A DNA stretch of 64,000 nucleotides from Candidatus Caenarcanales bacterium (GTDB taxonomy: Bacteria; Cyanobacteriota; Vampirovibrionia; LMEP-6097), in assembly GCA_013216135.1 (NCBI GenBank), contig JABSOS010000007.1:1-64000 (forward strand). The letters are read 5' to 3'. The position numbers and the translations under genes were made by a program. Shown piece after piece: positions 2,985 to 21,192 of the stretch (its first letter is position 1; each line of letters opens with the position of its first letter). The notes below the pieces were generated by a model. The model was not told the DNA's origin. It made no database searches and worked only from the letters and a program-made list of their open reading frames with translations.

Positions 2985-3024
2985 TTTGCGGAAAAATGAC
3001 CCCTAAAAATTCGTGAAGCAATTT
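2985..3024 (+). promoter_or_regulatory. Shared promoter module, copy 1, upstream of the VirB4 operon
   Basis: GCGGAA, 2 bp, ATGACC (2996-3001), 17 bp, CAATTT (3019-3024), then 15 bp to the ATG at 3040. The same arrangement occurs at three other places in the window, always upstream of a start codon. The block TGACCCCTWAAAATT is conserved even in the spacer, which suggests regulator binding in addition to sigma recognition. Confidence 0.65.
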
Positions 3025-3039
3025 TGCATTATTAAATGC

Positions 3040-3597
3040 ATGGATGCCTTTTCAAAAGAAGACCGCATATATTTTGCGACTAAAAATAAAATTGCTTATG
3101 CTCAAAAATCTCCTTTCTTAGAGAAAGAAATTATTTCACGAGTAATCGGTTCAAAAGAATTTTATAAGTCTATATCAGAGAAGCAAAGCTTCACAGAAAA
3201 ATTAAAAAGAATGCATGCAGCTGAGCATAAACTCTATAGATGCTTCATGAATAAAATTAAGAAGCTGCCATTTGATACTAGAGTAGAAACATTACTTAGA
3301 TATATTCCATCCATAAAAGAAATTAAAGAAACAAACAGTTTCTCATTTTTCTGCGGGACTACTCAAGCACTTTTCTTAATAAGTTTTAGCCTATCCCTAT
3401 TACTTTTAAACAACTTTACAAATACTCTTATTTCACTATTCATAAGCTTCTTCACTAGTTATTCACTAATATATTTCATCCAGAAGAAATATTTTTTAAC
3501 AGAACCAGATGAGTTTGAAATAGAAATAGCAAAAGCAGCACTAGTAAAAGTATTAGAAGGAGAAAAATATGACACTGATACTCACATCATCTATTAG
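3040..3597 (+). CDS. Membrane protein, first gene of the VirB4 operon, weakly DUF1385-like
   Basis: The protein has 185 residues from ATG 3040, chosen because it lies 15 bp past the -10 of the shared promoter module. A GTG at 3013 overlaps the promoter. A polar N-terminal half contains MHAAEHKLYRCF, which resembles the GAEHK motif of DUF1385 (YqhQ) membrane proteins. It is followed by two adjacent hydrophobic stretches at about residues 105-150 and a short polar tail. Its last 29 bp overlap the next gene, which indicates translational coupling. The DUF1385 link rests on one short motif and is tentative. It may be a membrane subunit of the secretion-like complex. Confidence 0.6.
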   Translation: MDAFSKEDRIYFATKNKIAYAQKSPFLEKEIISRVIGSKEFYKSISEKQSFTEKLKRMHAAEHKLYRCFMNKIKKLPFDTRVETLLRYIPSIKEIKETNSFSFFCGTTQALFLISFSLSLLLLNNFTNTLISLFISFFTSYSLIYFIQKKYFLTEPDEFEIEIAKAALVKVLEGEKYDTDTHIIY

Positions 3598-3985
3598 TTA
3601 CTATCTTATAAGCTTAATAAGCCATTACATAGTCTACAGAATTAGCATCCCAGTTAAAATTCTTGCTAGTAAAAGTAAGTCTCGAAATGGTGCTTTTATT
3701 TTAAGATCTGTTGCAACCACTACAGTGACTATCTTTCTTATTCAGGTTCTTCCACTCATATTTAAAATCATCGAAGACTTAGCCTCTGACTTTAATGTCT
3801 CTGTAATATTTTCTGAATCATATATAGGTGGTGGATTTTTAAATAACTTTGATAGATTCTCAGCCTTAATGGCGCAGATCGCTGCTCTACTTCAGCAAGT
3901 AGCACCTCTAATTGCAGTATTTATAGGAGGATTCAATCTTCTTAATAATTTATCTAAAGGAATAGCGGCTATCAAAAATGATTGA
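3569..3985 (+). CDS. Small polytopic membrane protein in the VirB4 operon
   Basis: This 138-residue protein has three hydrophobic segments: near the N-terminus, around TVTIFLIQVLPLIF, and near the C-terminus around LIAVFIGGFNLLNNL. An AAGGAG ribosome-binding site precedes its ATG, which lies inside the preceding gene. It overlaps the VirB4 start by 8 bp. In type IV secretion loci, small hydrophobic proteins just before VirB4 are often VirB2 pilin or VirB3, and position suggests such a role. The sequence itself does not let me decide. Confidence 0.6.
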   Translation: MTLILTSSISYYLISLISHYIVYRISIPVKILASKSKSRNGAFILRSVATTTVTIFLIQVLPLIFKIIEDLASDFNVSVIFSESYIGGGFLNNFDRFSALMAQIAALLQQVAPLIAVFIGGFNLLNNLSKGIAAIKND

Positions 3986-5924
3986 AGCAGAAGATATTTT
4001 AAATACAGAAATAAAACTAATAAGTAATTTTAGTATTAGAGATCTGCTTTTCTTGATTTTCATAATCCTTACTAATTACTTTTTGCTAGCAAGCTTGAAA
4101 ATTAGTATAAGCTCTCCTCTTTTTATTTTCTGTCTATCACTAGAAACTTTAGTTTGGGTACTCTTAAAAAGCTTATCCATTAAAGCTTACGCTCCTTTAC
4201 ACTACTTGAATTTAATTGGCTTTTACTTTAGGAAACTAAAACATAGTGCTGAAAAGTATTTCAAAAATACTTTCAAAGATACTCAAATATATCACTGTAA
4301 AAATTTAATTAACGACTCATGGATAGATGAAAAAAATCATGAACAAATAGGTAAAAGTTTTAGTAATTTAATTAAAAGTCTTTATCAGATTGACAATGAA
4401 ATACAAATAAACTTTCGTATATTCATTAGTAATGAAAAAGGAAATGGGGAACAGTTTCACCCTAAAAGAAAACTATATTTCGAAATGAAGACAAGTCAAA
4501 ATCATAGTTTCATTGAAGAAGAGTTAAAGAATTTTTTTATACTAAATAACTTAAGTATAGAAAAAATCAAAACTGAGAACTTCATTAACTTCTATAAAAT
4601 ATTTACCGGTATTAAACATTTCATCAAAGAAAGAAAAGATTACTTAAAAACTAAATACTATATCTCGAACCTTCAAGTAAAGAACTTTAAAGAAGAATCT
4701 ATTTCTCTAAATCAATTAATTAAAGCCATTCAATGTAAAGGTGAGTTAAATTTAAAAATAAACTTCCAGAATCAAGATCAAATTTCTAAATTAATTAAAT
4801 TTAAAAAAATAATTATTAAGTATCTCAATCCAGAAAACAATCACAATCAACAGCTTTTAACAAAGTTAGAAAATATTGAAAACAATATTCAAAAGGATGA
4901 AGCCTACATAGAAGAAAAGATCAATATTAAATTAATCTCAAGCACTAGGGATATATTAAAAACAAATGAGAAATCGCTATGTAATAAAGCCTTTAACGGT
5001 GAGATTATAAAACCACATTTCTCAGAGTATAAAAGCTTTACAAATAACTATATAAGTAAAAGTTTAATTAACCTAAATGAGCTAAAAAAACTTAATCCAT
5101 TTATTGAAAACAGAGTAGGAACACCTCATGGAGAAGTAATAGCCTGCAAAGCAGATGATAACTCACTAGTTAAGTTTGATATATTTGATAAGAATTTCTC
5201 AAATAACTATTCTATAAATTTTATTGGAGACTCTGGTTCTGGAAAATCTCTTGCAGCAAAACTACTGATGAAAAGACTTTCAAAGAATAAGCAGAATAAG
5301 TTCATTATCATTGATAGTTCTTTAGAAGGCTGGGAGAAAATAACTAAAGAATTATCAGGAAATATAGAGAGTTTTAAAAATATTAGTAAAAGTACTCATG
5401 CAATTGACTCTATAAAAAACTCGCAAGTGAATTTATTTAACTTTTATGCAATCGAAAAAGATATAAGAACCAGTCAAAACTTACTTCTTCAAATATTAGA
5501 GAAGATCAATAAGTTAGTTATAGAAAGGGATTCAAACTACTTTATTATCATTGACGAAGCTTGGAAATTATTAATTAATGAAAACTCCAAAGCATCTTCA
5601 GAACTCTTAAGTAAAATCGCAAGAACAGGAAGATCTATGAATATAGGCTTGTGGACACTATCTCAAAAACCAAAAGATATAAACCGAGATATTCACTCAA
5701 ATGCAAGCAACAGTTTCATTTTTCAAATTAAGGAAGAAAATGATAAAGATGAACTTACTAAGTATCTCAGTATAAGCAAACAAGAGAGAAATTCACTCGA
5801 TAGTTTTCAAATCAAGCAAAGAGGCTTTGCCCTAATGAAAAACCAATACTTTTCAGGGTTAATCAAATTCACCTTTGAAAGTAATGAGTTTAAGTTCTTA
5901 AACTCGGAGCATAAAATATGTTGA
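3978..5924 (+). CDS. virB4: VirB4/TraC-type secretion ATPase
   Basis: VirB4 ATPases energise pilus assembly and substrate transfer at the base of type IV secretion systems. The 648-residue protein shows the Walker A motif GDSGSGKS at about residues 417-424 and Walker B FIIIDEAWKLL at about 522-532. ARTGRSMNIGLWTLSQKPKD follows, as in VirB4 and TraC. The first ~75 residues hold two hydrophobic helices, like a fused VirB3 or PrgI-type N-terminus. The middle is lysine- and asparagine-rich and poorly conserved. It overlaps both neighbours by a few bases. The operon has no VirD4 coupling ATPase, VirB11 or relaxase within the window. Confidence 0.85.
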   Translation: MIEAEDILNTEIKLISNFSIRDLLFLIFIILTNYFLLASLKISISSPLFIFCLSLETLVWVLLKSLSIKAYAPLHYLNLIGFYFRKLKHSAEKYFKNTFKDTQIYHCKNLINDSWIDEKNHEQIGKSFSNLIKSLYQIDNEIQINFRIFISNEKGNGEQFHPKRKLYFEMKTSQNHSFIEEELKNFFILNNLSIEKIKTENFINFYKIFTGIKHFIKERKDYLKTKYYISNLQVKNFKEESISLNQLIKAIQCKGELNLKINFQNQDQISKLIKFKKIIIKYLNPENNHNQQLLTKLENIENNIQKDEAYIEEKINIKLISSTRDILKTNEKSLCNKAFNGEIIKPHFSEYKSFTNNYISKSLINLNELKKLNPFIENRVGTPHGEVIACKADDNSLVKFDIFDKNFSNNYSINFIGDSGSGKSLAAKLLMKRLSKNKQNKFIIIDSSLEGWEKITKELSGNIESFKNISKSTHAIDSIKNSQVNLFNFYAIEKDIRTSQNLLLQILEKINKLVIERDSNYFIIIDEAWKLLINENSKASSELLSKIARTGRSMNIGLWTLSQKPKDINRDIHSNASNSFIFQIKEENDKDELTKYLSISKQERNSLDSFQIKQRGFALMKNQYFSGLIKFTFESNEFKFLNSEHKIC

Positions 5925-6457
5925 AAAGATCATTACTAAAAGTATTAACTCTTCAAGAAAAAGAAAAGTACTTAGTACTTATAGTCGTAGTTCTATGTTT
6001 AATAATTTTATTTTCTTTTATCGAAATTTCAGAAACAAAAGAACAATTGAAGTCAAAAAATAAAATTAATATTGAAAATAGTATTTTAAAAATGAGTCAA
6101 GGAGAAGAAAAGCATGATATTGATGCCTTTGTAAAAAAATACTTAGATAACATTTTCAACTCAAACTCAGATAGTGATTTAACTTGGCTTAAAGAACATA
6201 GTGATCAAAAATTCTTTTTAGATACTCTTAGTGCACACTTAAGTGCACGAATTGAAAAGAAAATAGCAAGTAACTTTAGTATTGAAAGATTTTATAGAGA
6301 AGACTTAGATAGAAACATTGAAAAAATAATTGTATTCGGTGAGGAAAAGTTTTCTAACTCAAATTATGAAAATAGAGTACTTGTAATTGAACTAATTTTA
6401 AATACAGAGCTATTAAAAGTCGAGGAGATTATTTCTATCAAGACACTCAATGAATAA
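5918..6457 (+). CDS. VirB8/TraE-like bitopic membrane protein
   Basis: The product has 179 residues: a short cytoplasmic start, one membrane helix at about residues 18-38 (YLVLIVVVLCLIILFSFI), and an extracytoplasmic domain of about 135 residues. This topology, size and position directly after VirB4 match VirB8/TraE, the inner-membrane scaffold of type IV secretion systems. The soluble part has ISIKTLNE at the end and alternating hydrophobic strands, but I see no decisive motif. Start and stop overlap the flanking genes (7 bp and 8 bp), so it is translationally coupled. Family assignment is mostly by position. Confidence 0.55.
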   Translation: MLKRSLLKVLTLQEKEKYLVLIVVVLCLIILFSFIEISETKEQLKSKNKINIENSILKMSQGEEKHDIDAFVKKYLDNIFNSNSDSDLTWLKEHSDQKFFLDTLSAHLSARIEKKIASNFSIERFYREDLDRNIEKIIVFGEEKFSNSNYENRVLVIELILNTELLKVEEIISIKTLNE

Positions 6458-7616
6458 AAATGTCTTCCTAATTCTAACTTCACTATGGCTCTCACAGATT
6501 CCTGTGCTAGCTTTTTCTTTAGATGATCTTTTGGATAAAATTAATAACAATATTAAAACCTACCCAGAAGTTAGAGATAGAAAAATTCATTTTAAGACTG
6601 GTAAAAGTCCACTTGCAGCTTTAGAAACGATTGAAGATAAAACGAAAAGAGAATTTGAGAAAGCAAAGCAAAGCCAAGAAAGAATAGTTACCATCAGTGC
6701 TGCAAATAAAATTGTCGGGCTCGCTGATGGCTTTATTAATGTTAAATACCAAGTTCAAGATGGCATAAAAAATGCTCTTAAAGACATATTTATCGGTTAT
6801 CCAGAGTATCAAAGACGAAAAGTCACAGAAGAAATCACAAATGCAAACATAAACTCACATATAAACCTCCTAGACTTTATTTATCAGTTTAGTTTCGAGG
6901 ATTACTTTACTAGTCTATATCTTCAGAAAAATTCAATAGCTCATACACAAATATATAAAAAGCTAAAACAGATAAGTTTTAGTCTAGTAATAGTTATTAC
7001 ACTAATAAAGCTCCTAGAATCCTTTTTCATAAAAGAAAATATTGCTCGAGAAAGAATTGAAGTGATAATAAAAAAATCAATACTTTGTTTATTACTATTA
7101 ATCACATTAGATTTAACATGGTCTTTAATATTAAAATCCTGCTTATTTTTAAGTGAATATTTAAATACCATAAATACTTTTATTGAAAATAAACTTAATT
7201 ACATTAACCTAATCCAGAGTTTAATTTCCTCCTGGGAAAGTTTACTAAATAGAATCGGCTATTTCCCAGCATTAATATTAAGCCTAGTCGATACTTGCAG
7301 TCACTTTCTTTTTTACTCAGTGATTGCCTTTTCAAGCCTAATATTAGTGCTAATTAAATTATGCTCCCCCTTACTTATCCTTACAGAGCTATTTAGCAAT
7401 TCGAAATCCTTAAACCTAAACTACTTTTTCCTCTTTATAAAAATCATTTTTCTATTTATGCTTTTTCCTCTTTTTATAAAAATCAATCATTTCATTGCAA
7501 ATAGCATTGATATCTCTGGTCTTAAGTACTTAAATATTATTTATTCGATTAATTTATTTTTAGCAATATCAATTATTTTCTTATGGACACTCACTTATAG
7601 AGCTAAAACCAATTAA
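6450..7616 (+). CDS. VirB6/TrbL-like polytopic membrane protein
   Basis: The 388-residue protein begins with a probable signal peptide (NKNVFLILTSLWLSQIPVLAFS). A charged region of about 150 residues follows, then five or six strong hydrophobic helices from about residue 175 to the end. An extracytoplasmic segment followed by a multi-helix bundle fits VirB6/TrbL-type channel proteins. Its place after the VirB8-like gene supports that. It starts inside the preceding gene. The C-terminus is very hydrophobic and ends just after the last helix. Confidence 0.55.
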   Translation: MNKNVFLILTSLWLSQIPVLAFSLDDLLDKINNNIKTYPEVRDRKIHFKTGKSPLAALETIEDKTKREFEKAKQSQERIVTISAANKIVGLADGFINVKYQVQDGIKNALKDIFIGYPEYQRRKVTEEITNANINSHINLLDFIYQFSFEDYFTSLYLQKNSIAHTQIYKKLKQISFSLVIVITLIKLLESFFIKENIARERIEVIIKKSILCLLLLITLDLTWSLILKSCLFLSEYLNTINTFIENKLNYINLIQSLISSWESLLNRIGYFPALILSLVDTCSHFLFYSVIAFSSLILVLIKLCSPLLILTELFSNSKSLNLNYFFLFIKIIFLFMLFPLFIKINHFIANSIDISGLKYLNIIYSINLFLAISIIFLWTLTYRAKTN

Positions 7617-7629
7617 AATTATTACTATC

Positions 7630-9922: not shown

Positions 9923-9956
9923 GAATCAAGTTAATATTATAACTTACTGAGTTAAC

Positions 9957-11153
9957 TTAAACTAAATTATACTGAGTATCCCTCTGCGCAAAATCACGCC
10001 CACAAGCTTCGATGAAGTATTCCATCTGCTTAACAGAAGTTCTATAAGTAGTATCAGCAGCAGAAACCACATTCTCTTCCATCATATTCCCACCGAGATC
10101 ATTACAACCGAAGTTTAATGATACTTGACCGATTTCATGTCCTTGAGTAACCCAACTTGCTTGGAAGTTTTTAAAGTTATCTAAAAAGATACGAGCAATA
10201 GCAAGTGACCTTAGATATTCTTCACCCGAAGATTCTTTATTATATTCAGGTAATTTTCCATCTTTTTCAAAAGCATCCATGATTTTACCTAGTGGAGTTC
10301 CACCTCTCTGGAAATTCCACAGAACAAATGCAGTAAAACCATCTGTTCTATCCTGAACATCTCTAAGTTCTTGCATGTGCTGGACTCTATCCTCATAAGT
10401 CTCGACATGACCATACATCATAGTCGCAGAAGATCTAAAACCAATACTATGAGCTGTCTCCATAATATCAAGCCATCTTTGAGTGTCTATTTTTTTAGGA
10501 GCAATAATCTCTCTAACTCTTTCAGTAAGTATTTCAGCACCAGCACCTGGAAGTGAATCCATACCAGCATCTTTTAAAGCTTCTAGCACATACTTAATCT
10601 CTTCTAAGCTAGGTTCAATAATAGATCCAGGATTAGTTCCATCTCCATATAAACCTACTGGAGTAAAATGTTTCTCAGCTATATGCTGAACTTCAGAAGG
10701 GCTTAAAGCGTGTAAAGTTACGCTTGGAAAATCTTTTTTAATCTGAATAAAAAGTTCTTGATAATAATCTAAACCTAGTTCAGGGTTATGTCCCCCCTGC
10801 AAAAGAATTTCAGTCCCTCCAATATCAACTAATTCCTGAATCTTAGGTTTCATTTCTGTTTCGTAATCTAAAACATAAGCTTTTGGGAAATTACCTACAC
10901 CTTCTTCGATTCCAGGAGGGGTATAAAAAGCACAGAAACTACAATGAGCAGTACAGACATTAGAATAATTAATATTTCTCTGTACTACATAAGTTACTGG
11001 TTCAGAGTCTGGATGAAGAGATTTTCTCTTTTCATTAGCTACATAAGCAAGTTCCAGTAGATCAGCATTTTCAAAAAGATCTAAAGCTTCAAGATAGCTA
11101 ATACGGTGACCTTCTAGAGCTTTATTAAGTATAGGGTTAGATGTTTTAAGCAC
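9957..11153 (-). CDS. mqnC: Cyclic dehypoxanthinylfutalosine synthase, radical SAM
   Basis: MqnC cyclises dehypoxanthine futalosine in the futalosine route to menaquinone. The 398-residue radical SAM protein binds a 4Fe-4S cluster through CTAHCSFC at about residues 68-75, preceded by NINYSNVC. It has the family segments GTEILLQGGHNPELGLDYY, SLPGAGAEILTERVR and SATMMYGHVETYEDRVQH. MqnE and CofH are relatives, but the RNINYSNVC opening and overall pattern favour MqnC. It starts 5 bp after the end of the preceding coiled-coil gene, so these may be co-transcribed. No other mqn gene is nearby. Its presence implies a menaquinone-based respiratory chain, consistent with nuoHI and atpG here. Confidence 0.85.
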   Translation of the reverse strand: MLKTSNPILNKALEGHRISYLEALDLFENADLLELAYVANEKRKSLHPDSEPVTYVVQRNINYSNVCTAHCSFCAFYTPPGIEEGVGNFPKAYVLDYETEMKPKIQELVDIGGTEILLQGGHNPELGLDYYQELFIQIKKDFPSVTLHALSPSEVQHIAEKHFTPVGLYGDGTNPGSIIEPSLEEIKYVLEALKDAGMDSLPGAGAEILTERVREIIAPKKIDTQRWLDIMETAHSIGFRSSATMMYGHVETYEDRVQHMQELRDVQDRTDGFTAFVLWNFQRGGTPLGKIMDAFEKDGKLPEYNKESSGEEYLRSLAIARIFLDNFKNFQASWVTQGHEIGQVSLNFGCNDLGGNMMEENVVSAADTTYRTSVKQMEYFIEACGRDFAQRDTQYNLV

Positions 11154-11158
11154 TATTA

Positions 11159-11833
11159 TTATTCTACCTCGAAAGAATCTTTTGAATCTTTCAATTGCAG
11201 CTCTAGTAGAAATTTACTGACCAATAGCTTTAAATGATTGTTAATTGGTTGATTCAGTTGCTTAGAATCATTATAAACATTAATGTCATTAGCAAATTTA
11301 CTCTTACTTAATAATTGATTCTTTCTCGGATCAATATCTTTAATCATTGGAATTAAAGTTTTAAAAAATATCATTTTTCTAGCTTTGTCTAACTTTAGTT
11401 TTTTAGATAAATCAAGCCAAGAGCTATCAAATAAGTCTAATAAATTGTTTATTTTAGATTTATTAAAAAACTTAATCAAATCATTTTTAAAATTCCTCTC
11501 CTGATATGTCTCAATGTTCCTCATCGCATTTTCTAAATTATCATCTTCGAATTTTTTTGCGAGAGTATCAATAAAATCAACTAATTGCTTGTCAAAAGAA
11601 TGCTTAATTTCGGGCGAAAAACTCTCCTTATAACGAGATAAATTTTCAAGCATTTCTCTGTTACCTTTTTCAAGATTATTAGAAAATTTAACTACATCAG
11701 CCATTTTTTCTACAATTTGATAAGCAACTTCTTCTATCTTCTCCCGAGAGCTAATAGTTCTATTTTGATAATTCAAAACGTCTTTAGTAAGATCGCTAAA
11801 AACCTTCCTAGCTTTAGTTATGCTAATTGCCAT
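11159..11833 (-). CDS. Hypothetical helical protein
   Basis: The 224-residue protein is charged, rich in lysine and asparagine, almost entirely helix-favouring, and has no signal peptide or membrane segment. I recognise no domain. It lies immediately upstream of mqnC on the same strand. A TAGAAT hexamer ends 6 bp before the ATG and there is no Shine-Dalgarno sequence, so the mRNA is probably leaderless and may extend through mqnC and thrC. No link to menaquinone synthesis is visible from the sequence. Confidence 0.65.
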   Translation of the reverse strand: MAISITKARKVFSDLTKDVLNYQNRTISSREKIEEVAYQIVEKMADVVKFSNNLEKGNREMLENLSRYKESFSPEIKHSFDKQLVDFIDTLAKKFEDDNLENAMRNIETYQERNFKNDLIKFFNKSKINNLLDLFDSSWLDLSKKLKLDKARKMIFFKTLIPMIKDIDPRKNQLLSKSKFANDINVYNDSKQLNQPINNHLKLLVSKFLLELQLKDSKDSFEVE

Positions 11834-11918
11834 ATAGACATTCTAATCATATGTAACCCACAATAAATTAAAGCTATCTAATTATAGAAACAATAAAGTG
11901 AAAATATTCTAAGAAAAC

Positions 11919-13382
11919 TTAAACCATAGCCTCAACGGTCTTAACTAAGTTATCCAGCTCAACCTTATCATTACCCTCAAAGTAAACTCTACACATAGCT
12001 TCAGTACCACTTGGACGAGCAAGTAACCATGAACCATTCTCGAAATAAAGCTTAGCTCCTTCAGTTAAATCAACTTTAAGAACTTTAAAATCACCAATAT
12101 TTTTCAGTTCTGGATTTTTAAAAGTAGCAACAAACTCATCTTTCTTCTCACCATCTAAATGTAGGTCTAATCTATCGTAGAAATATTTCTTACCGACAAA
12201 GTCTTGAACCTCATCCCATAACTGAGAAAGAGTTTTTCCAGTAGCTGCTAGAACTTCAGCTGTAAGTAAGATAGCTAAAATACCATCTTTCTCAGGGATA
12301 TGACCTTTAATACTCATTCCACCAGACTCTTCGGCTACTAAAAGCATTTCCTGCTCTCTCATAAGAGCACAAAGCCACTTAAAGCCTACTGGAGTTTCTA
12401 TAGTTTCAGTTTCTAACTTTTTAGCAAGTTCATCAAATAAATGAGTAGTAGCTAAAGTTCTACCGATTTTACCTTTAAAACCTTTATTCTCAGCTAAATA
12501 CTTAGTGATGATAGGAAGCGTTTTATTCGCTGGATAGAACTCTCCTTTATCGTCTAAGAATGCAAATCTATCAGCATCTCCATCATTAGCAGCTCCTAAT
12601 TGAGCTTTTTCAGAGATAACCGTTTCTTTTAATTCCGTTAATCTTTTTACAGATGGGTCTGGAAGAGAACCACCAAATGTCGGGTCAACAGTGTCATGGA
12701 GAGCAGTTACATTAAAACCAGCTTCTTCAAGAATTTTATTAACAAAGTTCTTGCCTACACCGTGAAGTGAATCGTAGATGACCTTAACTTGATTTTCAGA
12801 ATTCTTTTTCTTAAGTAAATCAAAATCTACAACAGTTTTAATATAGTTCACATATGGAGTCTTAGCGTCGAAAGTAGAAATAGAAGCAGATGCTTTATGC
12901 GCAAGCTTAGAAACTTTCTCTGAATAAGCTTCTTTATCGTCAGCAAACTTTTCAGTTTCAGCAAGGATTTGATTAGTAATCTCAACTGTAGCTGGACCAC
13001 CATATTCTGGAATAAACTTAATTCCCATATATTCAGAAGGGTTATGACTTGCGGTAAACATTAGTGCACCATAGCTAGGCTCAGCTTGAGCTGCAAAAGC
13101 TATAACAGGAGTAGCTATCGGTTCAGGAATTAGTTTCACATCGATTCCAAAAGAATTAAAAATCTCAGCAGAGAATTTAGCAAATTTATCAGCTAAAAAA
13201 CGTGCATCATATCCTATAAAAATAGGCTTATCCTCTTTAAAGTTATTAAGAATATATGAAGAAATTGCTCTAGTTACTAAGTCTAAATTGTCATAAGTGA
13301 ACTCTTTAGCGATTAATGCTCTCCACCCATCGGTTCCGAAACGGATTTGGTGTTTACTAGAAGACTTTGAAACTGCTTGCAT
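11919..13382 (-). CDS. Phosphoglucomutase/phosphomannomutase family protein
   Basis: This alpha-D-phosphohexomutase moves phosphate between C1 and C6 of hexose phosphates through a phosphoserine. The 487-residue protein shows RFGTDGWRA at the start, the catalytic serine loop TASHNPSEYMGIKF and the metal-binding loop ANDGDADRF. The sugar loop EESGGMS and the phosphate-binding ARPSGTEAMCRVYFEG near the C-terminus are also present. The EESGGMS loop fits a phosphogluco/phosphomannomutase rather than GlmM (typically EQSGH), so glucose or mannose phosphates are the likely substrates. It is divergent from aroKB with overlapping promoters. Confidence 0.88.
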   Translation of the reverse strand: MQAVSKSSSKHQIRFGTDGWRALIAKEFTYDNLDLVTRAISSYILNNFKEDKPIFIGYDARFLADKFAKFSAEIFNSFGIDVKLIPEPIATPVIAFAAQAEPSYGALMFTASHNPSEYMGIKFIPEYGGPATVEITNQILAETEKFADDKEAYSEKVSKLAHKASASISTFDAKTPYVNYIKTVVDFDLLKKKNSENQVKVIYDSLHGVGKNFVNKILEEAGFNVTALHDTVDPTFGGSLPDPSVKRLTELKETVISEKAQLGAANDGDADRFAFLDDKGEFYPANKTLPIITKYLAENKGFKGKIGRTLATTHLFDELAKKLETETIETPVGFKWLCALMREQEMLLVAEESGGMSIKGHIPEKDGILAILLTAEVLAATGKTLSQLWDEVQDFVGKKYFYDRLDLHLDGEKKDEFVATFKNPELKNIGDFKVLKVDLTEGAKLYFENGSWLLARPSGTEAMCRVYFEGNDKVELDNLVKTVEAMV

Positions 13383-13391
13383 ACTGTATTA

Positions 13392-13421
13392 ATTATATGT
13401 CAAAATAAGCTAAAAGTGCAA
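13392..13421 (-). promoter_or_regulatory. Promoter of the phosphohexomutase gene, overlapping the aroKB promoter
   Basis: On the minus strand TTGCAC (13416-13421), 18 bp, TATAAT (13392-13397), then 9 bp to the ATG at 13382. On the plus strand TTGCAT (13377-13382), 18 bp, CAAAAT (13401-13406), then 9 bp to GTG 13416. The two divergent promoters occupy the same 45 bp, and each predicts an almost leaderless mRNA. Confidence 0.55.
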
Positions 13422-15125
13422 AACCAAAGCGATAAATTAGAACAAATTAAGCTTCCCATTAATGAAAAAGAGAACATTGCCCTCACGGGAATCATGGGAG
13501 CTGGAAAAAGTTCTGTTGGTTCTAAACTAGCGAAGTACCTCAGAAGAAAGTTTATTGACCTAGACTCATTCATAGAGAAAAAAGCAGGCAAAACTGTAAA
13601 AGAAATTTTTGAATATGAAGGTGAAGAAGCTTTCAGAGCTTTAGAGAAAGCAGCTATTAGAGAAGTTTTCAGTAATAATAACTTAGTCGTAGCACTTGGT
13701 GGTGGAGCCATAGTAAATGAAGAAAATAGAAACTTCATTCAAAGTCGAGCAAAAATTATTACTCTTTTAGCTGATATTGACACAGTTTCACAAAGAGTTG
13801 AGCATAAAACCCACAGACCTCTTTTAAAAGGTACAGATCAGAAAAATACCTTAGTAGACCTTTGGGAAAAAAGAAAAGATGTGTATATGAGCACTGACTT
13901 ACAGGTTTGTACTATGGATAAATCTGTAGATGGTTTAGCTAAACATATAATCTCTGAACTGGGTTTGGAAGAGATTGCTTACGGTAGACTCAACGTAGAG
14001 ATCCCTCGAAACTCCCATGGTTACGATATCCTATTCGATGATCTTTTAAAAATACACACCACATTAAAAAGATTAAATTTAGGTAGAAAAGTTCTAGTCC
14101 TTAGTCAGTCAGGTATTCCCGAACAATTCATTAATAGACTAAAGTCAGCTCTTCAGTATCATTTTGAGATTCATGCACTAACTTTAGATGATGGCGAGAA
14201 AAACAAAAACTTCTTTAGCTATCAGCTAATAATGCAAAATTTACTAAGTCATAAATTCGAAAGGAAAGATACTATTATCTCACTTGGTGGTGGAGTTATA
14301 GGAGATATGGGCGGTTTTGCAGCAGCAACTTACTATAGAGGAATTAACTATATCCAAATCCCAACTACACTTCTTTCTATGATTGATTCATCTGTCGGTG
14401 GTAAAACGGGAATTAATGTCCCTGAAGGGAAAAATTTAATCGGTGCTTTCTATCAACCAAACTTAGTTTATATCGATGTTGCTCACTTAGAGACTCTTCC
14501 AGATAAAGAATTCAAAAGTGGTTTAGGTGAATTAATTAAGTATGCCTTACTAGGAAAGCAATGGGACTCACTCATAGTCGACGATGAAGATGATACATTC
14601 TTTGATTTCATTGATAGAAACCATCAACTCATTAAAGATAGAGATCCTGAAATCCTTAATAGGATTATCAGACACTGCTTACAAATTAAAGCAAATATTG
14701 TAATTAATGATGAACGTGAATCTGGTATTAGAATGCACCTCAATCTAGGGCATACTTTCGGGCATGCACTTGAAGAGGTTACAAACTTTGAAAGATATAG
14801 TCACGGTGAAGCTGTAGCGATAGGTATAGTCTGTGCCTGCTACTTATCTGAACAAATAGATATCTTCAGTCATCTACACACCAACAAAGTAATTGAGTTA
14901 ATGAAAGCTTTTGATATGGATTACCAAATCCCAGCAGACATTGATATTAATGCTCTAATGGAATCAATGAAGCACGATAAAAAAGTCGAGCAAGGTCAAT
15001 TAAAATTCATTCTACCTAGGGAGAGAATCGGTTCTATATCTACAATCAAAGATTTAGCTCCTAAATTAGTAAAGAAAGCTTTAAAGAGAAACCAAAGAAC
15101 AAACGAGGTAACAAGTAATGGCTAG
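13416..15125 (+). CDS. aroKB: Fused shikimate kinase and 3-dehydroquinate synthase (AroKB)
   Basis: This bifunctional enzyme of the shikimate pathway has about 569 residues. The N-terminal ~170 residues are shikimate kinase: Walker A GIMGAGKSSVG, DLDSFIE, EEAFRALE, LGGGAIV. The rest is 3-dehydroquinate synthase, the second pathway enzyme: DDGEKNKN, LGGGVIGDMGGFAAATYYRG, PTTLLSMIDSSVGGKTGIN, the zinc ligands in GELIKYALLG and LNLGHTFGHALE, and HGEAVAIG. The start is uncertain. GTG 13416 lies 9 bp past a -10-like CAAAAT, whereas TTG 13377 would lie inside the neighbouring gene. It overlaps carA by 8 bp. Confidence 0.92.
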   Translation: MQNQSDKLEQIKLPINEKENIALTGIMGAGKSSVGSKLAKYLRRKFIDLDSFIEKKAGKTVKEIFEYEGEEAFRALEKAAIREVFSNNNLVVALGGGAIVNEENRNFIQSRAKIITLLADIDTVSQRVEHKTHRPLLKGTDQKNTLVDLWEKRKDVYMSTDLQVCTMDKSVDGLAKHIISELGLEEIAYGRLNVEIPRNSHGYDILFDDLLKIHTTLKRLNLGRKVLVLSQSGIPEQFINRLKSALQYHFEIHALTLDDGEKNKNFFSYQLIMQNLLSHKFERKDTIISLGGGVIGDMGGFAAATYYRGINYIQIPTTLLSMIDSSVGGKTGINVPEGKNLIGAFYQPNLVYIDVAHLETLPDKEFKSGLGELIKYALLGKQWDSLIVDDEDDTFFDFIDRNHQLIKDRDPEILNRIIRHCLQIKANIVINDERESGIRMHLNLGHTFGHALEEVTNFERYSHGEAVAIGIVCACYLSEQIDIFSHLHTNKVIELMKAFDMDYQIPADIDINALMESMKHDKKVEQGQLKFILPRERIGSISTIKDLAPKLVKKALKRNQRTNEVTSNG

Positions 15126-16265: not shown

Positions 16266-16808
16266 ATGTTTCAGAACTTTGAATTCAAACCATATAAATT
16301 AATTGACTACTCTAAAGATCGCGAAGAAGCTACTGTAGAGTTTGTCCGCAAAGGCTATGCTAGTGTCGGATACATGAACCTAGAACCAGATACTCTTGAT
16401 AATGATCTGCTTCATATTGAAGAGATTTATAAAGAACCTTCATTTTTCAAGTTACTTATAGACAAGTCACTGACTGACATTGATGGCAAAGCCAAAATAG
16501 TAGGATCCATAGCTCTGAAAATAAATAAAGCGAACCCAGAATTAGGACATTCTTCAGAATACGGTGAACTAAAGCGTGTTTTTACAGACACATCACTTCA
16601 TGGAAAAGGTTTAGGGAAGAAGCTTTCACAGTTTGCTTTTGACTATGCTAAAAAGAATGGAATTAAAGTTATAGATATTTGGTCTGGGACACTATGTGAA
16701 GTTGCACATAAGCTTTATCAAAAATTAGGTGCTAAGGATATGGGGGAGATGCGCTTTCTAGGTGGAATAGACGAGGTTTATGAAAAGTATTTTCAGCTTA
16801 GGCTTTAG
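16266..16808 (+). CDS. GNAT-family N-acetyltransferase
   Basis: The 180-residue protein has the GNAT core. An ELKRVFTDTSLHGKGLGKKLSQFAFDYAKK segment matches motif A (acetyl-CoA pyrophosphate loop, HGKGLGKKL). It is followed by the beta-alpha segment around IDIWSGTLCEVAHKLYQKLGA with its Tyr. Substrate is not predictable. It lies 17 bp after carA on the same strand. Its last 11 bp overlap the end of a small membrane-protein gene on the opposite strand. It marks the left border of the accessory block. Confidence 0.8.
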   Translation: MFQNFEFKPYKLIDYSKDREEATVEFVRKGYASVGYMNLEPDTLDNDLLHIEEIYKEPSFFKLLIDKSLTDIDGKAKIVGSIALKINKANPELGHSSEYGELKRVFTDTSLHGKGLGKKLSQFAFDYAKKNGIKVIDIWSGTLCEVAHKLYQKLGAKDMGEMRFLGGIDEVYEKYFQLRL

Positions 16809-16941
16809 AATTTTCATCTAGATCTGTATAATAGCTTTCGACAGGTGTGTTAACAAGTTTATTAACAAGTATTCCAATGATTATTACAATAACACCTGTA
16901 ACACTCATTCCGATTATTGTATTCGTATCAAAACTTTCCAT
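16798..16941 (-). CDS. Small single-helix membrane protein, partner of cassette A
   Basis: The product has 47 residues beginning MESFDTNTIIG. A single membrane helix spans about residues 8-28 (IIGMSVTGVIVIIIGILV), followed by a polar tail ending in DENSKA. The ATG overlaps the last 14 bp of the upstream cassette gene, and GGAGAGA serves as ribosome-binding site, so it is translationally coupled. It is the second gene of a cassette that recurs at 17222-17401 and 20733-20864, with little sequence identity but the same design. Function unknown. Confidence 0.6.
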   Translation of the reverse strand: MESFDTNTIIGMSVTGVIVIIIGILVNKLVNTPVESYYTDLDENSKA

Positions 16942-17161
16942 ATTCTCTCCTTATAATGTAAACTGAATAGCTTGCTAGCTGGTATGCAAAACAACATAAA
17001 GCTATAGAAAAAGGCAAACAATACAACAACTTAACTTCAAAGTTATTAAAATCACCTACTAAAAATCCTAACATCAAATGTCCAAATGGTATAGCTAGAA
17101 TATAAGCCAGGTTTCTAATAAGCTCAGCTCTGAATTTTATATGCTCTGGTATTGATGCCAT
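16928..17161 (-). CDS. Two-helix small membrane protein of the FRAE family, cassette A
   Basis: The product has 77 residues: a polar start, the motif FRAELIRNLAYILAIPFGHL in the first membrane helix (residues ~10-32), a polar loop, a second helix at about 44-68, and a charged tail. The same motif occurs at 20865-21104 (FRAECLKFIAFALTIPFGHL) and in degenerate form at 17385-17636. The shared promoter module ends 14 bp before the ATG. I know of no described family to place it in. The helix-loop-helix form is compatible with a holin-like, toxin-like or subunit role. Confidence 0.65.
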   Translation of the reverse strand: MASIPEHIKFRAELIRNLAYILAIPFGHLMLGFLVGDFNNFEVKLLYCLPFSIALCCFAYQLASYSVYIIRREYGKF

Positions 17162-17175
17162 ATTTTAATTATCGG

Positions 17176-17213
17176 AAATTTCTTTCAGGATTTTTAGGGG
17201 TCAAAATTCCGCA
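17176..17213 (-). promoter_or_regulatory. Shared promoter module, copy 2 (cassette A)
   Basis: On the minus strand GCGGAA, 2 bp, TTGACC (17199-17204), 17 bp, AAATTT (17176-17181), then 14 bp to the ATG. It lies between cassette C and cassette A, so cassette A is not merely read through from upstream. Confidence 0.65.
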
Positions 17214-17221
17214 GAATTGCT

Positions 17222-17401
17222 TTAAACATCTATAGGCGGAAAGAAAAAGTTTTCAAAAAACGACTTGCTTTTATCTATTTTACCGTTGCGCTTTCTGTAA
17301 TTATACTCAGGTAAATGCATTCCAATAATGGCTAACAAAACAGGCAGAAAAGTCATTAATCCTAAATTAATAACATCAATTAAACTATAATTTGGATTCA
17401 T
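17222..17401 (-). CDS. Small single-helix membrane protein, partner of cassette C
   Basis: The product has 59 residues beginning MNPNYSLIDV. One membrane helix spans about residues 8-30 (INLGLMTFLPVLLAIIGMHL), followed by a basic stretch (YRKRNGKIDKSK) and an aromatic/proline tail (FFENFFFPPIDV). A GGGAG ribosome-binding site precedes the ATG. The start overlaps the end of the FRAE-like frame at 17385-17636 by 17 bp, like the overlap in cassette A. It is too short for routine gene callers, and the support is the conserved cassette design. Confidence 0.5.
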   Translation of the reverse strand: MNPNYSLIDVINLGLMTFLPVLLAIIGMHLPEYNYRKRNGKIDKSKSFFENFFFPPIDV

Positions 17402-17636
17402 TATTAAACTCCCTAAGAGAAATCATAATGTTCACTGACCTAATAATCATCGTAAGCCCCCATATAAAAAAAGTCAAACAAAAGAAAAATTCAAAACTCA
17501 AAAACATTTCCTAGAAATGAAGTTCACGGCTTAAGACTTTTATCGACATAATAGCAAATGGAGTAGAAAGAGCAAAACCAAACTGTTTCAAGCTTTCTGA
17601 TTGAAATTTATAAGATTCTAAATCTTTATTCTCCAC
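17385..17636 (-). pseudogene. FRAE-family small membrane protein split by an in-frame TAG, cassette C
   Basis: From GTG 17636 the frame encodes about 41 residues with FQSESLKQFGFALSTPFAIM, matching FRAE...IPFGHL of the two intact paralogues. It then hits TAG (17511-17513). The same frame resumes two codons later at an ATG (17507) and runs 40 residues. That part has a second hydrophobic helix and an ending (SVNIMISLREF) resembling cassette A (SVYIIRREYGKF). Total length, 83 codons, fits the family (77 and 79). It may be a nonsense-mutated pseudogene, or be made as two one-helix peptides by reinitiation. It has its own promoter module. Confidence 0.55.
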
Positions 17637-17651
17637 AATAGTAATTATGAA

Positions 17652-17691
17652 AAATTAAATTGAAAAAATTAAGGGGTCAAAGTTTCGCAAA
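17652..17691 (-). promoter_or_regulatory. Shared promoter module, copy 3 (cassette C)
   Basis: On the minus strand GCGAAA, 2 bp, TTGACC (17675-17680), 17 bp, TAATTT (17652-17657), then 15 bp to GTG 17636. About 55 bp here closely resemble the copy before cassette B (21119-21158). The interval also faces the divergent gene at 17730. Confidence 0.65.
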
Positions 17692-17729
17692 TTTAGATAC
17701 AATAATTTTAGTTTACTAGAAGCTTGGTG

Positions 17730-18371
17730 ATGTCTGCAGTTTTTGAAAATCCAGAAAATATTTTAGAGCTGATCAAGTCAGCAAATAGCTTTCATGGACT
17801 AACATGTGCTGAATTAATGAACTGTAATTCAGCTATAGCTTGGTTTAGGAATATTACTTGTCCTGAATTTAAGACTGGGGCTGAGGTTTTTCGGGGGAAT
17901 TTGGATGGGTTGTTATCAAATAACTATTTAACATGGCTTACAAACTTTACATATAAAAATGATTCTCAATTTAGCCAATTATTAACCATCACATCTGCTT
18001 TGGATATCGGAGTTTTAACGATACTTGCTCCATTTACTCTTGAAGTGCTAAGGGGATTTCAAAATATAATTTCTGGATTGAGACTTGGAACTAATGAAAA
18101 TATTTCAGATAAAATGATTAATCTTCTTTGGTATTTTTCTTTACATCTGGTATTTAATCTAATGATTATTTCTTTGTCTAATATTAAAGGATATGCTAAT
18201 TTGTCAGGTCTAATATACATAATCTCATTAATCTCAACAGTTGCTCTAATTTTCTATTTAAGATCAGTATTTTCAGAAGCGATAAAAGTTTCTTCTGGTA
18301 GTGATCCAAATAAATACATTCAAGAGACTCTATTAGAAGATTATGATAAAAAAATGGGGATTAAAATTTGA
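17730..18371 (+). CDS. Hypothetical membrane protein, first gene of an accessory pair
   Basis: The product has about 213 residues. A polar N-terminal third with several cysteines (GLTCAELMNCNSA..NITCPEF) is followed by hydrophobic segments at about residues 88-108, 133-152 and 157-178, and an acidic/lysine tail. I recognise no domain. ATG 17730 is chosen over the adjacent upstream TTG and GTG. No good ribosome-binding site is seen, but TACAAT lies at 17698-17703. The stop overlaps the TTG start of the next gene, so the pair is translationally coupled. It is transcribed divergently from cassette C. It could anchor the 787-residue partner to the membrane. Confidence 0.65.
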   Translation: MSAVFENPENILELIKSANSFHGLTCAELMNCNSAIAWFRNITCPEFKTGAEVFRGNLDGLLSNNYLTWLTNFTYKNDSQFSQLLTITSALDIGVLTILAPFTLEVLRGFQNIISGLRLGTNENISDKMINLLWYFSLHLVFNLMIISLSNIKGYANLSGLIYIISLISTVALIFYLRSVFSEAIKVSSGSDPNKYIQETLLEDYDKKMGIKI

Positions 18372-20731
18372 CTGAAATAAAAAATAAAAATGATATAGAA
18401 AATTCAGTTTACGATTTATGCCAAATTTTGCTATCAGAAATTGCAGATGAAACAACAAAAAATAGAGTTATTGAAATTTTAGAGAAACACCTTAATTCCT
18501 ATTATCGAAAATTTTATGAAATATTCAAAGCTGATGATATATACGGAGAAATAAATGCAAAAGAATTTTCAAACCTAATACATGTCGTAAATAGTGAATT
18601 GAAGAACTTATACTTTAAAACTCAAAATGATGGAGTGATAAATGAAATCCTAAGCTTAATTGAAAATATAATAAAAAAACAACTAGAACTATCATCTCAA
18701 GAGTTCAATCCAATTCTAGATAGCACGTCTAAAAGTATTATCTACTTTCAAAAAGTTGTATTTGAATTCAACATTCTAAAAGAAATTCTAGACTTTGAAC
18801 TAAAGGAACAAAATAGTAAAAGAATAGAAAAGATTTGTTTTGGTTTGTATCAAAGAGATTTTCAAATAGTAGATAATTTGAAGATCTATAAAATAGCATC
18901 AGATTATTTTCTAAGCTTTATTAGTCCATTACTAAAAGATGAACAAAGTTTTTTAATAAAGGAGTTCTTCACCAAGGATTTATTAAATTATCCTCTAATG
19001 AGGCAATATATTGGTTATAGCTTGGAGCAGAATTTTATACATGCCTATGACCTAAATAATTTCATTAACTGTGAAATGTACGACAAAACTTATTATGAGA
19101 TTGAAGATTCTATCAAAGAAAAATATCAAGATTTGGTATATAGGTACGAAATAAATGACCAAAATATTTCAGATACAATCGATGATATAACGGATTTTCT
19201 TGAATCAAAAGTTATAAAAGATAAAGAGCTTTTCAGTACATATATAGATCACATTAAAGGTCATTTATATACAAAACAACAACACTCTATCTTAATGCAA
19301 ACTAGCTTTAAAGTATTGGCAAGACTATATGATGAAAATCAAGTCGAAGAAATAAGACATATAATCGAAGAGCCTATTAAAAAACATGGCATGAGTCAAA
19401 GTATAGTCATATTTTTTCCGCATGGTCATTATTACCACTATAAGCAAATATCATTGTTTATAAATTTAGTGTTTAAACTACTTGATGAATCTTACCGAGG
19501 CAGAGCCACAGTTAACGTAAAGCCTATTATAAATTTGTATTTGGCTTATTTTTTAAAACGTGAATGGAATGAACTTAAGCAATGGTCATCAAATGATCTT
19601 TTGGGTATCTTTGTTGATGAACAATCAGCAAATAAAATGAATGCTTTAGCTCGATATGTCGAAGATTACCTTATTACTTGGATTGATTATTTTAGGCAAG
19701 CTTTTCTTTGTGAAAATGAACAAGATAAAAAAGATATAATTCAACACCTAGACAAATTTGCTCAGCTAATTTACCAAAAACCTTTTACCCAATGTAAAAA
19801 CGAAGTTAAATCGCTAATTGAAGAACTAGAGATATTTTATAAAAAGATTATTGAAGAAGCACGCAAAAAGCGTGATGAACTTCTATATAAGACTGAGTTT
19901 GATGACACTAAAGTAGACATGCTTAAAGGCATCTTTAGAAGTAACTATGATAATGATTTTCCAAACTTATTCAAAATACTCGATTTCGAGTTGTGCTCTT
20001 CTTTTCAAAAACTTGCAGATCAAAAATTGCAATATGATTTAGGGAAATGGGGTAAAGAATTTATTACGAAGAATGATCTATATAATCCTTTATCAATGAA
20101 TTCTCGATCAATTGCAAAATCATTAAGACCCATTCAAGAATACCTACTAAGTTTAATAAACGATTCAATCAAAGACTTAACTCCAAAAGAATTACAAGAT
20201 AAATCATTAAATGAATTTATAAACTCTTTAATGGACTCTCACAAATTCAACCCTGAAACATGTTTGGCTCTATATTATCCATCTAAATTAACGACAGAAG
20301 AACACTCCTTACTTTTCCAAAGAAGGGATAGCCATATAGACTCACAAAAAATCAAATCAATTAATCAACCTGAATATAAATTCATAAGACAACACCTTTA
20401 TTCAAAAGATCAGGAGATAATTATCCCAGTAATCAATCCCCAACTTGAGATATTAGATAACTACTTAATTATCATAGACAAAAGCAAACTACCAAAAATG
20501 CAAGTAACTCAAAAAGCCTATGATAACTTCAAAAAAGATAAATCTATATTCAATCAAGAGCTTTTAGATATTCTTATTGAAGAAAACCCTGAAAACTATA
20601 AAGAAGTATTAATAAAATACAGAACGAATTTCAATTTTAGTAAAACTAGTAAATGCTTTGGCTTTAAAATAAATCTAAAAGACTTTCTCAATAATTACGA
20701 AAAGAAAGACCAGGAGACAAAAAAATTATAA
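18368..20731 (+). CDS. Large hypothetical protein coupled to the membrane protein
   Basis: The product has 787 residues from a TTG start that overlaps the preceding stop (TTGA). It is strongly helical, rich in Lys, Glu, Asp, Ile and Asn, with no membrane segment, Walker motif or nuclease motif that I can identify. Features seen are VIFFPHGHYYHYKQ in the middle and a long charged helix around EELEIFYKKIIEEARKKRDELLY. A C-terminal beta-rich stretch follows around DQEIIIPVINPQLEILDNYLIIID. Base composition is more AT-rich than the neighbouring housekeeping genes, which suggests transfer. A membrane protein plus a large cytosolic helical protein flanked by small membrane cassettes could be a defence or contact system, but this is conjecture. 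Confidence 0.7.
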   Translation: MTEIKNKNDIENSVYDLCQILLSEIADETTKNRVIEILEKHLNSYYRKFYEIFKADDIYGEINAKEFSNLIHVVNSELKNLYFKTQNDGVINEILSLIENIIKKQLELSSQEFNPILDSTSKSIIYFQKVVFEFNILKEILDFELKEQNSKRIEKICFGLYQRDFQIVDNLKIYKIASDYFLSFISPLLKDEQSFLIKEFFTKDLLNYPLMRQYIGYSLEQNFIHAYDLNNFINCEMYDKTYYEIEDSIKEKYQDLVYRYEINDQNISDTIDDITDFLESKVIKDKELFSTYIDHIKGHLYTKQQHSILMQTSFKVLARLYDENQVEEIRHIIEEPIKKHGMSQSIVIFFPHGHYYHYKQISLFINLVFKLLDESYRGRATVNVKPIINLYLAYFLKREWNELKQWSSNDLLGIFVDEQSANKMNALARYVEDYLITWIDYFRQAFLCENEQDKKDIIQHLDKFAQLIYQKPFTQCKNEVKSLIEELEIFYKKIIEEARKKRDELLYKTEFDDTKVDMLKGIFRSNYDNDFPNLFKILDFELCSSFQKLADQKLQYDLGKWGKEFITKNDLYNPLSMNSRSIAKSLRPIQEYLLSLINDSIKDLTPKELQDKSLNEFINSLMDSHKFNPETCLALYYPSKLTTEEHSLLFQRRDSHIDSQKIKSINQPEYKFIRQHLYSKDQEIIIPVINPQLEILDNYLIIIDKSKLPKMQVTQKAYDNFKKDKSIFNQELLDILIEENPENYKEVLIKYRTNFNFSKTSKCFGFKINLKDFLNNYEKKDQETKKL

Positions 20732-20732
20732 A

Positions 20733-20864
20733 CTAATCCTCCTCCCCCATATCCCTTTTAAAACCTCTTTTTGCATCCTCTAGAATAAAATTAGCTAAAG
20801 CAATTCCACCTATTCCAGCGCAAATACCTAAAACATACCTGAGAACTTCTGAATCTTCTAGCAA
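20733..20864 (-). CDS. Small single-helix membrane protein, partner of cassette B
   Basis: The product has 43 residues from a TTG start immediately after the TAG of the upstream cassette gene. AAGGAG lies 10 bp before it, so it is coupled. A helix rich in Gly, Ala and Ile spans about residues 8-27 (VLGICAGIGGIALANFI), followed by a charged tail ending RDMGEED. It ends 1 bp from the convergent 787-residue gene. It belongs with the partners at 16798-16941 and 17222-17401 by position and layout. Confidence 0.5.
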   Translation of the reverse strand: MLEDSEVLRYVLGICAGIGGIALANFILEDAKRGFKRDMGEED

Positions 20865-21104
20865 CTATAATATCTCCTTCTTAACATCAGCCAAAGTATT
20901 TACACAATGATGAATAATTAGATATGAACAATTTAACAGAAAAATAGAAATAGGTAAAGTTACAGTAAGCTTAAAGATTATATTCTCTAATTCCCCTTGA
21001 ATTATACTCAAGAATAAATGCCCAAAAGGAATTGTCAAAGCAAAAGCTATAAACTTTAAACACTCAGCTCTAAACTCAACTGCTTTTGTCCTATTTTTCT
21101 CCAT
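20865..21104 (-). CDS. Two-helix small membrane protein of the FRAE family, cassette B
   Basis: The product has 79 residues: polar start MEKNRTKAVE, FRAECLKFIAFALTIPFGHL in the first helix (~10-35), a second helix at about 46-66, and a polar tail ADVKKEIL. It is clearly paralogous to the protein at 16928-17161, sharing FRAE, IPFGHL and spacing. The shared promoter module ends 14 bp before its ATG. The tail codons also supply the ribosome-binding site for the next gene. Function unknown. Confidence 0.65.
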   Translation of the reverse strand: MEKNRTKAVEFRAECLKFIAFALTIPFGHLFLSIIQGELENIIFKLTVTLPISIFLLNCSYLIIHHCVNTLADVKKEIL

Positions 21105-21118
21105 ACCCTAATTATGAA

Positions 21119-21158
21119 AAATTAGACTAGAAATTTTAAGGGGTTAAAATTCCGCAAA
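21119..21158 (-). promoter_or_regulatory. Shared promoter module, copy 4 (cassette B)
   Basis: On the minus strand GCGGAA, 2 bp, TTAACC (21142-21147), 17 bp, TAATTT (21119-21124), then 14 bp to the ATG at 21104. It also lies about 35 bp before the divergent UDG-like gene. Confidence 0.65.
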
Positions 21159-21192
21159 TATATACCAATCAACAACAAGCTAAAATAAGCAT

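What the first reader, a model, noticed from the sequence alone, without database searches (positions are those of the whole stretch)
17730..20731. Unrecognised membrane-protein/787-residue-protein pair framed by the cassettes
Seen: a three-helix membrane protein and a large helical protein overlap by TTGA, sit in a more AT-rich stretch, and lie between cassettes C and B. The housekeeping genes on either side (carA-acetyltransferase, UDG) look unrelated. Inference: an acquired module, possibly defence or contact-dependent, with the large protein as cytosolic sensor or effector and the small one as anchor. No catalytic motif was found, so this is only a position-based idea.
Basis: inference. 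Interest (0 to 1): 0.65.

Follow-up and report, generated by a model that had tools for sequence, protein, structure and literature searches.

The report
Orphan membrane-linked putative defence gene pair
A non-photosynthetic relative of cyanobacteria carries an unknown two-gene pair (a small membrane protein and a large soluble partner) that occurs twice in its genome, each time beside small repeated membrane-gene units which, in this and related genomes, often sit next to known virus-defence or toxin-antitoxin genes; the pair is therefore a candidate, untested, new defence system.

Summary
In detail: gene A (17730-18371, 213 aa, three hydrophobic helices) and gene B (18368-20731, 787 aa) overlap by TTGA, are AT-rich (30% and 27.5% GC against 35-39% nearby), and lie between small two-gene 'cassettes'. 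No search found a relative: Pfam, NCBIfam, PADLOC, PHROGs, PDB, plasmids, phages, IMG/VR, or the class and phylum genomes sampled. New here: the same genome holds a second, very divergent copy (A2 170 aa, B2 783 aa; about 24-27% identity, same order, overlapping), directly behind a cassette. The cassettes are two-small-membrane-protein transcription units with a promoter-like motif found almost only in Caenarcaniphilales MAGs. In this and related genomes cassettes often abut KAP/PifA-like NTPases, SIR2, MNT-HEPN, type I and III R-M, a CapP-like peptidase and BrnA antitoxin; in one relative a KAP NTPase sits in the slot that A-B fills here. Best reading: an accessory conflict (probably anti-phage, abortive type) module, A as membrane effector or anchor, B as cytosolic sensor/regulator. 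That rests on position, composition and duplication; no catalytic motif, usable structure or experiment supports a mechanism.

The parts
17730..18371 (+). Gene A1: 213-aa orphan membrane protein, three hydrophobic helices, C-terminal tail probably cytosolic by charge
   Evidence: no family hits; divergent paralogue A2 at L043:1422-1934
18368..20731 (+). Gene B1: 787-aa orphan soluble, probably helical protein, TTG start, 4-nt overlap with A1
   Evidence: no hits; divergent paralogue B2 at L043:1912-4263
17642..17695 (-). Regulon-type promoter-like motif of the cassette divergent from A1; the intergenic stretch 17696-17729 is where an A1 promoter would lie (none shown)
   Evidence: one search found promoter-like matches at about the shuffled rate, none there
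17222..17636 (-). Cassette next to A1: broken ORF1 (17636-17511, frame shifts) and intact ORF2 (17401-17222, 59 aa)
16800..17219 (-). Second upstream cassette: motif 17166-17219, ORF1 17161-16928 (77 aa), ORF2 16941-16800, small membrane proteins
   Evidence: ORF2 read by eye
20733..21162 (-). Cassette convergent with B1: motif 21109-21162, ORF1 21104-20865 (79 aa), ORF2 20864-20733 (43 aa)
2988..7616 (+). Another transcription unit with the same motif: VirB4/HerA-like ATPase operon (a regulon member, not part of the pair)

Best explanation
A-B is a two-gene accessory conflict module, most likely an anti-phage system of abortive type, occupying a cassette-associated slot where related bacteria keep known defence genes. 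Proposed working: B, a large cytosolic helical protein, detects an infection cue and signals to, or holds in check, the membrane protein A, which then damages the cell membrane, as proposed for membrane-acting systems such as RexAB and PifA. Shown: the two genes, their overlap, a second divergent copy in the same order, adjacency to cassettes in both loci (behind a cassette in one, between cassettes in the other), frequent adjacency of cassettes to defence genes, and low GC. Inferred: that A and B interact, that the function is defence, which protein senses and which acts, and the killing step.
For: Second copy A2-B2 behind a cassette with overlapping reading frames ORF2/A2/B2. Cassettes adjoin SIR2, MNT-HEPN-like, KAP/PifA-like in G000:C24, KAP/PifA-like in L110 lying reversed next to a full cassette and a truncated one as A1-B1 does, type I R-M, type III MTase plus CapP/ImmA-IrrE-like peptidase and BrnA antitoxin. 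Hand count: 7 of about 18 cassette loci against 0 of 11 cassette-free loci with the same motif, Fisher p 0.02, indicative only. Patchy distribution: none in 382 class and 386 phylum genomes sampled. GC of B1, B2 and the KAP gene is 27.5-28.1% against 31-39% for the other genes measured. Membrane-depolarisation model for RexAB and PifA: PMC8594841.
Against: No defence profile matches A or B. No catalytic, NTPase or nuclease motif. AlphaFold without relatives gave pLDDT 37-42, so nothing structural supports it. Eight of the eleven cassette loci in this genome have no defence-like or A-B module beside them. A1/A2 and B1/B2 similarity is weak; one decoy reached z 4.1 against 4.7 for B1/B2. Defence adjacency was judged after the fact and the loci are not all independent.
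Confidence: 0.45

Rival explanations
1. A-B is a downstream component of the motif regulon (with YifB/ComM, a VirB4-like operon and the small membrane proteins): it works with the cassette proteins at the envelope, for instance in DNA uptake, secretion or surface assembly, and is not a defence system.
For: In C49 the frames run motif-ORF1-ORF2-A2-B2 with overlaps, suggesting one operon; the motif precedes YifB/ComM, a VirB4/HerA-like operon and surface-protein operons.
Against: In the window A-B is on the opposite strand from the cassettes and has no motif of its own. Most cassettes lack A-B. The pair is absent from relatives that have the regulon.
Confidence: 0.22
2. A-B is a toxin-antitoxin or immunity-type pair acting between bacteria (A a membrane toxin or immunity protein, B its neutraliser), maintained like the tandem small-membrane-protein units.
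For: Overlapping genes; cassettes multiply in tandem arrays of diverging copies and adjoin TA genes in relatives.
Against: A 787-aa antitoxin would be unusual; no TA profile match; no secretion or delivery domain seen.
Confidence: 0.15
3. A-B is a fast-evolving lineage-specific pair whose closeness to cassettes and defence genes only reflects insertion-tolerant sites, with an unrelated function.
For: No recognisable homologue elsewhere; several cassettes lie between plain housekeeping genes.
Against: Two copies of the same pair, both at cassettes, are hard to explain by tolerance alone.
Confidence: 0.1
4. B1/B2 and A1/A2 are not related; both loci simply hold a membrane gene followed by a long helical gene, alike by architecture and composition.
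For: Pairwise E-values are poor (best blastp 0.18-0.23), the N-terminal third of B shows no signal and one long decoy scored almost as high.
Against: Same order, similar lengths, overlapping genes, global z 4.7 and 3.7, middle-region z 7.4, shared C-terminal stretch.
Confidence: 0.08

Closest known systems
KAP family P-loop NTPases / PifA-like (PF07693)
   Same: A large protein with membrane segments found in the same genomic slot next to cassettes (G000:C24, REEB446 L110); low GC like A-B in C24; PifA is a membrane-linked phage-exclusion system
   Different: A-B has no P-loop or KAP domain and splits membrane and soluble parts into two genes; no sequence relation to the C24 KAP protein
RexAB (lambda) and other membrane-effector abortive systems
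   Same: Two genes, a small multi-helix membrane protein plus a cytosolic sensor (from general knowledge)
   Different: RexA is far shorter than B (recalled) and no sequence match exists; resemblance of plan only
Kiwa (KwaA membrane protein + KwaB)
   Same: Membrane protein followed by a soluble partner (from general knowledge)
   Different: No PADLOC match for A or B at E up to 1; B is about twice as long as KwaB (recalled)
Integron-type gene cassettes
   Same: Tandem, same-direction repeated units in an array (G000:C28)
   Different: The repeated site is a promoter-like motif present ahead of single-copy conserved operons; no integrase was seen in the loci examined (not searched genome-wide)

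Membership tests
Known anti-phage defence system (any in PADLOC-DB 2023) | Match to a curated defence profile | tested here: not met
   no hit for A1, B1, A2, B2
Known anti-phage defence system (any) | Protects cells from phage | not testable with these tools
   needs an experiment
Defence-island accessory module | Association with defence or TA genes at the same kind of locus | tested here: inconclusive
   A-B itself has no known defence gene adjacent; its cassette neighbours often do in other loci
KAP/PifA-like | KAP P-loop domain, Walker A | tested here: not met
RexAB | Sequence relation to RexA/RexB | tested here: not met
   no Pfam, PHROGs, phage or PADLOC hit
Toxin-antitoxin pair | TA family match | tested here: not met
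Recurrent A-B module | Same two genes, same order, overlapping, more than once | tested here: met
   two copies in one genome; weak but collinear similarity
Cassette protein family (ORF1/ORF2) | Profile similarity of A to ORF1 or ORF2 | tested here: not met
   hhalign probability about 1% or less

The most novel reading that the evidence does not exclude
A-B founds a new two-gene membrane-linked anti-phage system carried at loci marked by a Caenarcaniphilales regulon of paired small membrane proteins, which themselves may take part in the same defence or in competence-linked conflict.
Probability: 0.25. Interest if true: 0.75.

Novelty: new variant of a known kind. Interest (0 to 1): 0.5.

Why it matters
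If true, A-B would be a defence module with no recognised protein family, in a little-studied non-photosynthetic branch of the cyanobacterial phylum, and the small-membrane-gene units would be a handle for finding further unknown conflict genes in that order. It also links a promoter-like motif shared with ComM and a VirB4-like operon to loci rich in defence genes, a link that transcription data could test directly.

Tried and rejected
A 930-aa gene beside a C24 cassette looked like an A-B fusion but is a KAP NTPase with no similarity to A or B. The 763-aa gene at C34 is unrelated. A weak hit in G190 lies in an 818-aa ORF whose start does not resemble B. Weak phylum hits L122 and L123 are short ORFs in unrelated neighbourhoods, taken as chance. 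A phage match to B2 at E 0.5 was ignored. Cassettes as integron or transposon ends: rejected because the repeat is a motif ahead of conserved single-copy operons. AlphaFold models were too poor to search by fold. Empty-site comparison impossible, neighbours not conserved.

Full report
What is there. Gene A (17730-18371) encodes 213 aa and gene B (18368-20731) 787 aa; the TGA of A and the TTG start of B share the letters TTGA. A has three hydrophobic helices at 84-102, 129-147 and 158-176; the charge pattern puts the C-terminal tail in the cytosol, though the 83-residue N-terminus is hard to place. B has no hydrophobic helix and looks helical, but the structure models are of very low confidence. 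GC is 29.9% and 27.5% against 35-39% for most housekeeping genes measured.

Orphan status. No profile matched A or B in Pfam, NCBIfam, PADLOC or PHROGs beyond chance-level scores, nor did PDB sequences, plasmids or phages, IMG/VR or the GTDB contig scan (these two find close relatives only). Six-frame searches of 60 relatives, 382 class genomes and 386 phylum genomes found only the window itself at convincing E-values. In the large sets only two candidates per genome were scored, so distant relatives can have been missed.

A second copy. On contig C49 of the same genome a cassette is followed by a 170-aa membrane protein (A2, four hydrophobic helices) and a 783-aa protein (B2), with overlapping frames, between a sulfotransferase-like gene and trpB. 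A1/A2 and B1/B2 align in order over their lengths at about 27% and 24% identity. Against shuffles the global scores are z 3.7 and 4.7; other proteins of these genomes reached at most 2.7 for A and, with one exception of 4.1, at most 2.2 for B. The middle of B scores z 7.4 and the C-terminus z 3.0, with a shared stretch LDNYLIIIDKSKLPKMQVTQKAYDNF / LLDHLLLIDFSSLPALKVTSKRNYQNL; the N-terminal third gives no signal. Single-sequence E-values are poor, so the relation rests on collinearity, gene order, size and location together. Profile searches of the own genome found no third copy.

The cassettes. Each is a 50-60 nt repeat followed by two small membrane-protein genes (about 79 and 54 aa). Contig C28 carries a tandem array of about 17; other copies lie singly. 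The repeat contains GGAAWWWTGACCCCTWAAAATT roughly 30 nt before the start codon. In 84,980 species genomes it matched 18 stretches, 17 of them in three Caenarcaniphilales/Melainabacteria MAGs. Downstream genes include YifB/ComM, a VirB4/HerA-like operon (also in this window at 3013-7616), a surface-protein operon and the small-membrane-protein pairs. So the repeat is best read as a regulon promoter element rather than a recombination site. The window genome is most likely a member of that order: 17 of the 18 matches lie there, and the family member G001 shares a 61,604-base contig length and position with MAG REEB446.

What sits beside cassettes. Directly behind or next to cassettes I found a KAP/PifA-like NTPase (C24), SIR2, a nucleotidyltransferase plus HEPN-like pair (below Pfam cut-offs), type I R-M, a type III methyltransferase with a CapP/ImmA-IrrE-like peptidase and a BrnA antitoxin. 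In REEB446 (L110) a KAP NTPase lies in reverse between a full and a truncated cassette, the same layout as A1-B1 here, where the cassette next to A1 also has a broken ORF1. A hand count gives 7 of about 18 cassette loci with a known defence or TA gene against 0 of 11 loci that have the motif without a cassette (Fisher p 0.02; control loci checked by eye). The count is post hoc, some loci are orthologous, and the control loci were not run through the profile libraries, so it is only indicative. In this genome eight of eleven cassette loci show neither A-B nor a defence gene.

Interpretation. A-B behaves as an accessory module held at cassette loci. By position and company the likeliest function is conflict, probably anti-phage, with a membrane effector and a cytosolic sensor. 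The mechanism is inference. A role in the ComM/VirB4-like regulon is the main rival, since A2-B2 appears to be in one operon with a cassette, but A1-B1 is on the opposite strand and lacks the motif. Literature context: RexAB and PifA are described as sensing phage proteins and killing by membrane depolarisation (PMC8594841); the order Caenarcaniphilales was proposed from UASB_169 (PMC4040986).

Noticed in passing
L034 (G000:C28) 4594-12640, minus strand: About 17 tandem copies of a two-small-membrane-protein unit, diverged, some truncated, most with their own promoter-like motif; many carry a GCGGAA hairpin that could end the preceding unit. Function unknown.
   Followed up: partly
window 2988-3036 and L062, L083, L084, L100-L115: Promoter-like motif GGAAWWWTGACCCCTWAAAATT nearly confined to Caenarcaniphilales, ahead of YifB/ComM, a VirB4-like operon, surface-protein operons and a LuxR-type HTH gene that could be its regulator.
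   Followed up: partly
window 3013-7616: Operon with a VirB4/HerA-like ATPase (3978-5924) and small membrane proteins, with the same upstream neighbours in relatives (L103, L114); possibly a DNA-uptake or secretion apparatus.
   Followed up: no
L110 4640-6679: KAP/PifA-like NTPase reversed between a full and a truncated cassette that share upstream sequence, suggesting cassette duplication around the insert.
   Followed up: partly
window 13377-15125: Shikimate kinase and 3-dehydroquinate synthase appear fused in one 582-aa frame.
   Followed up: no
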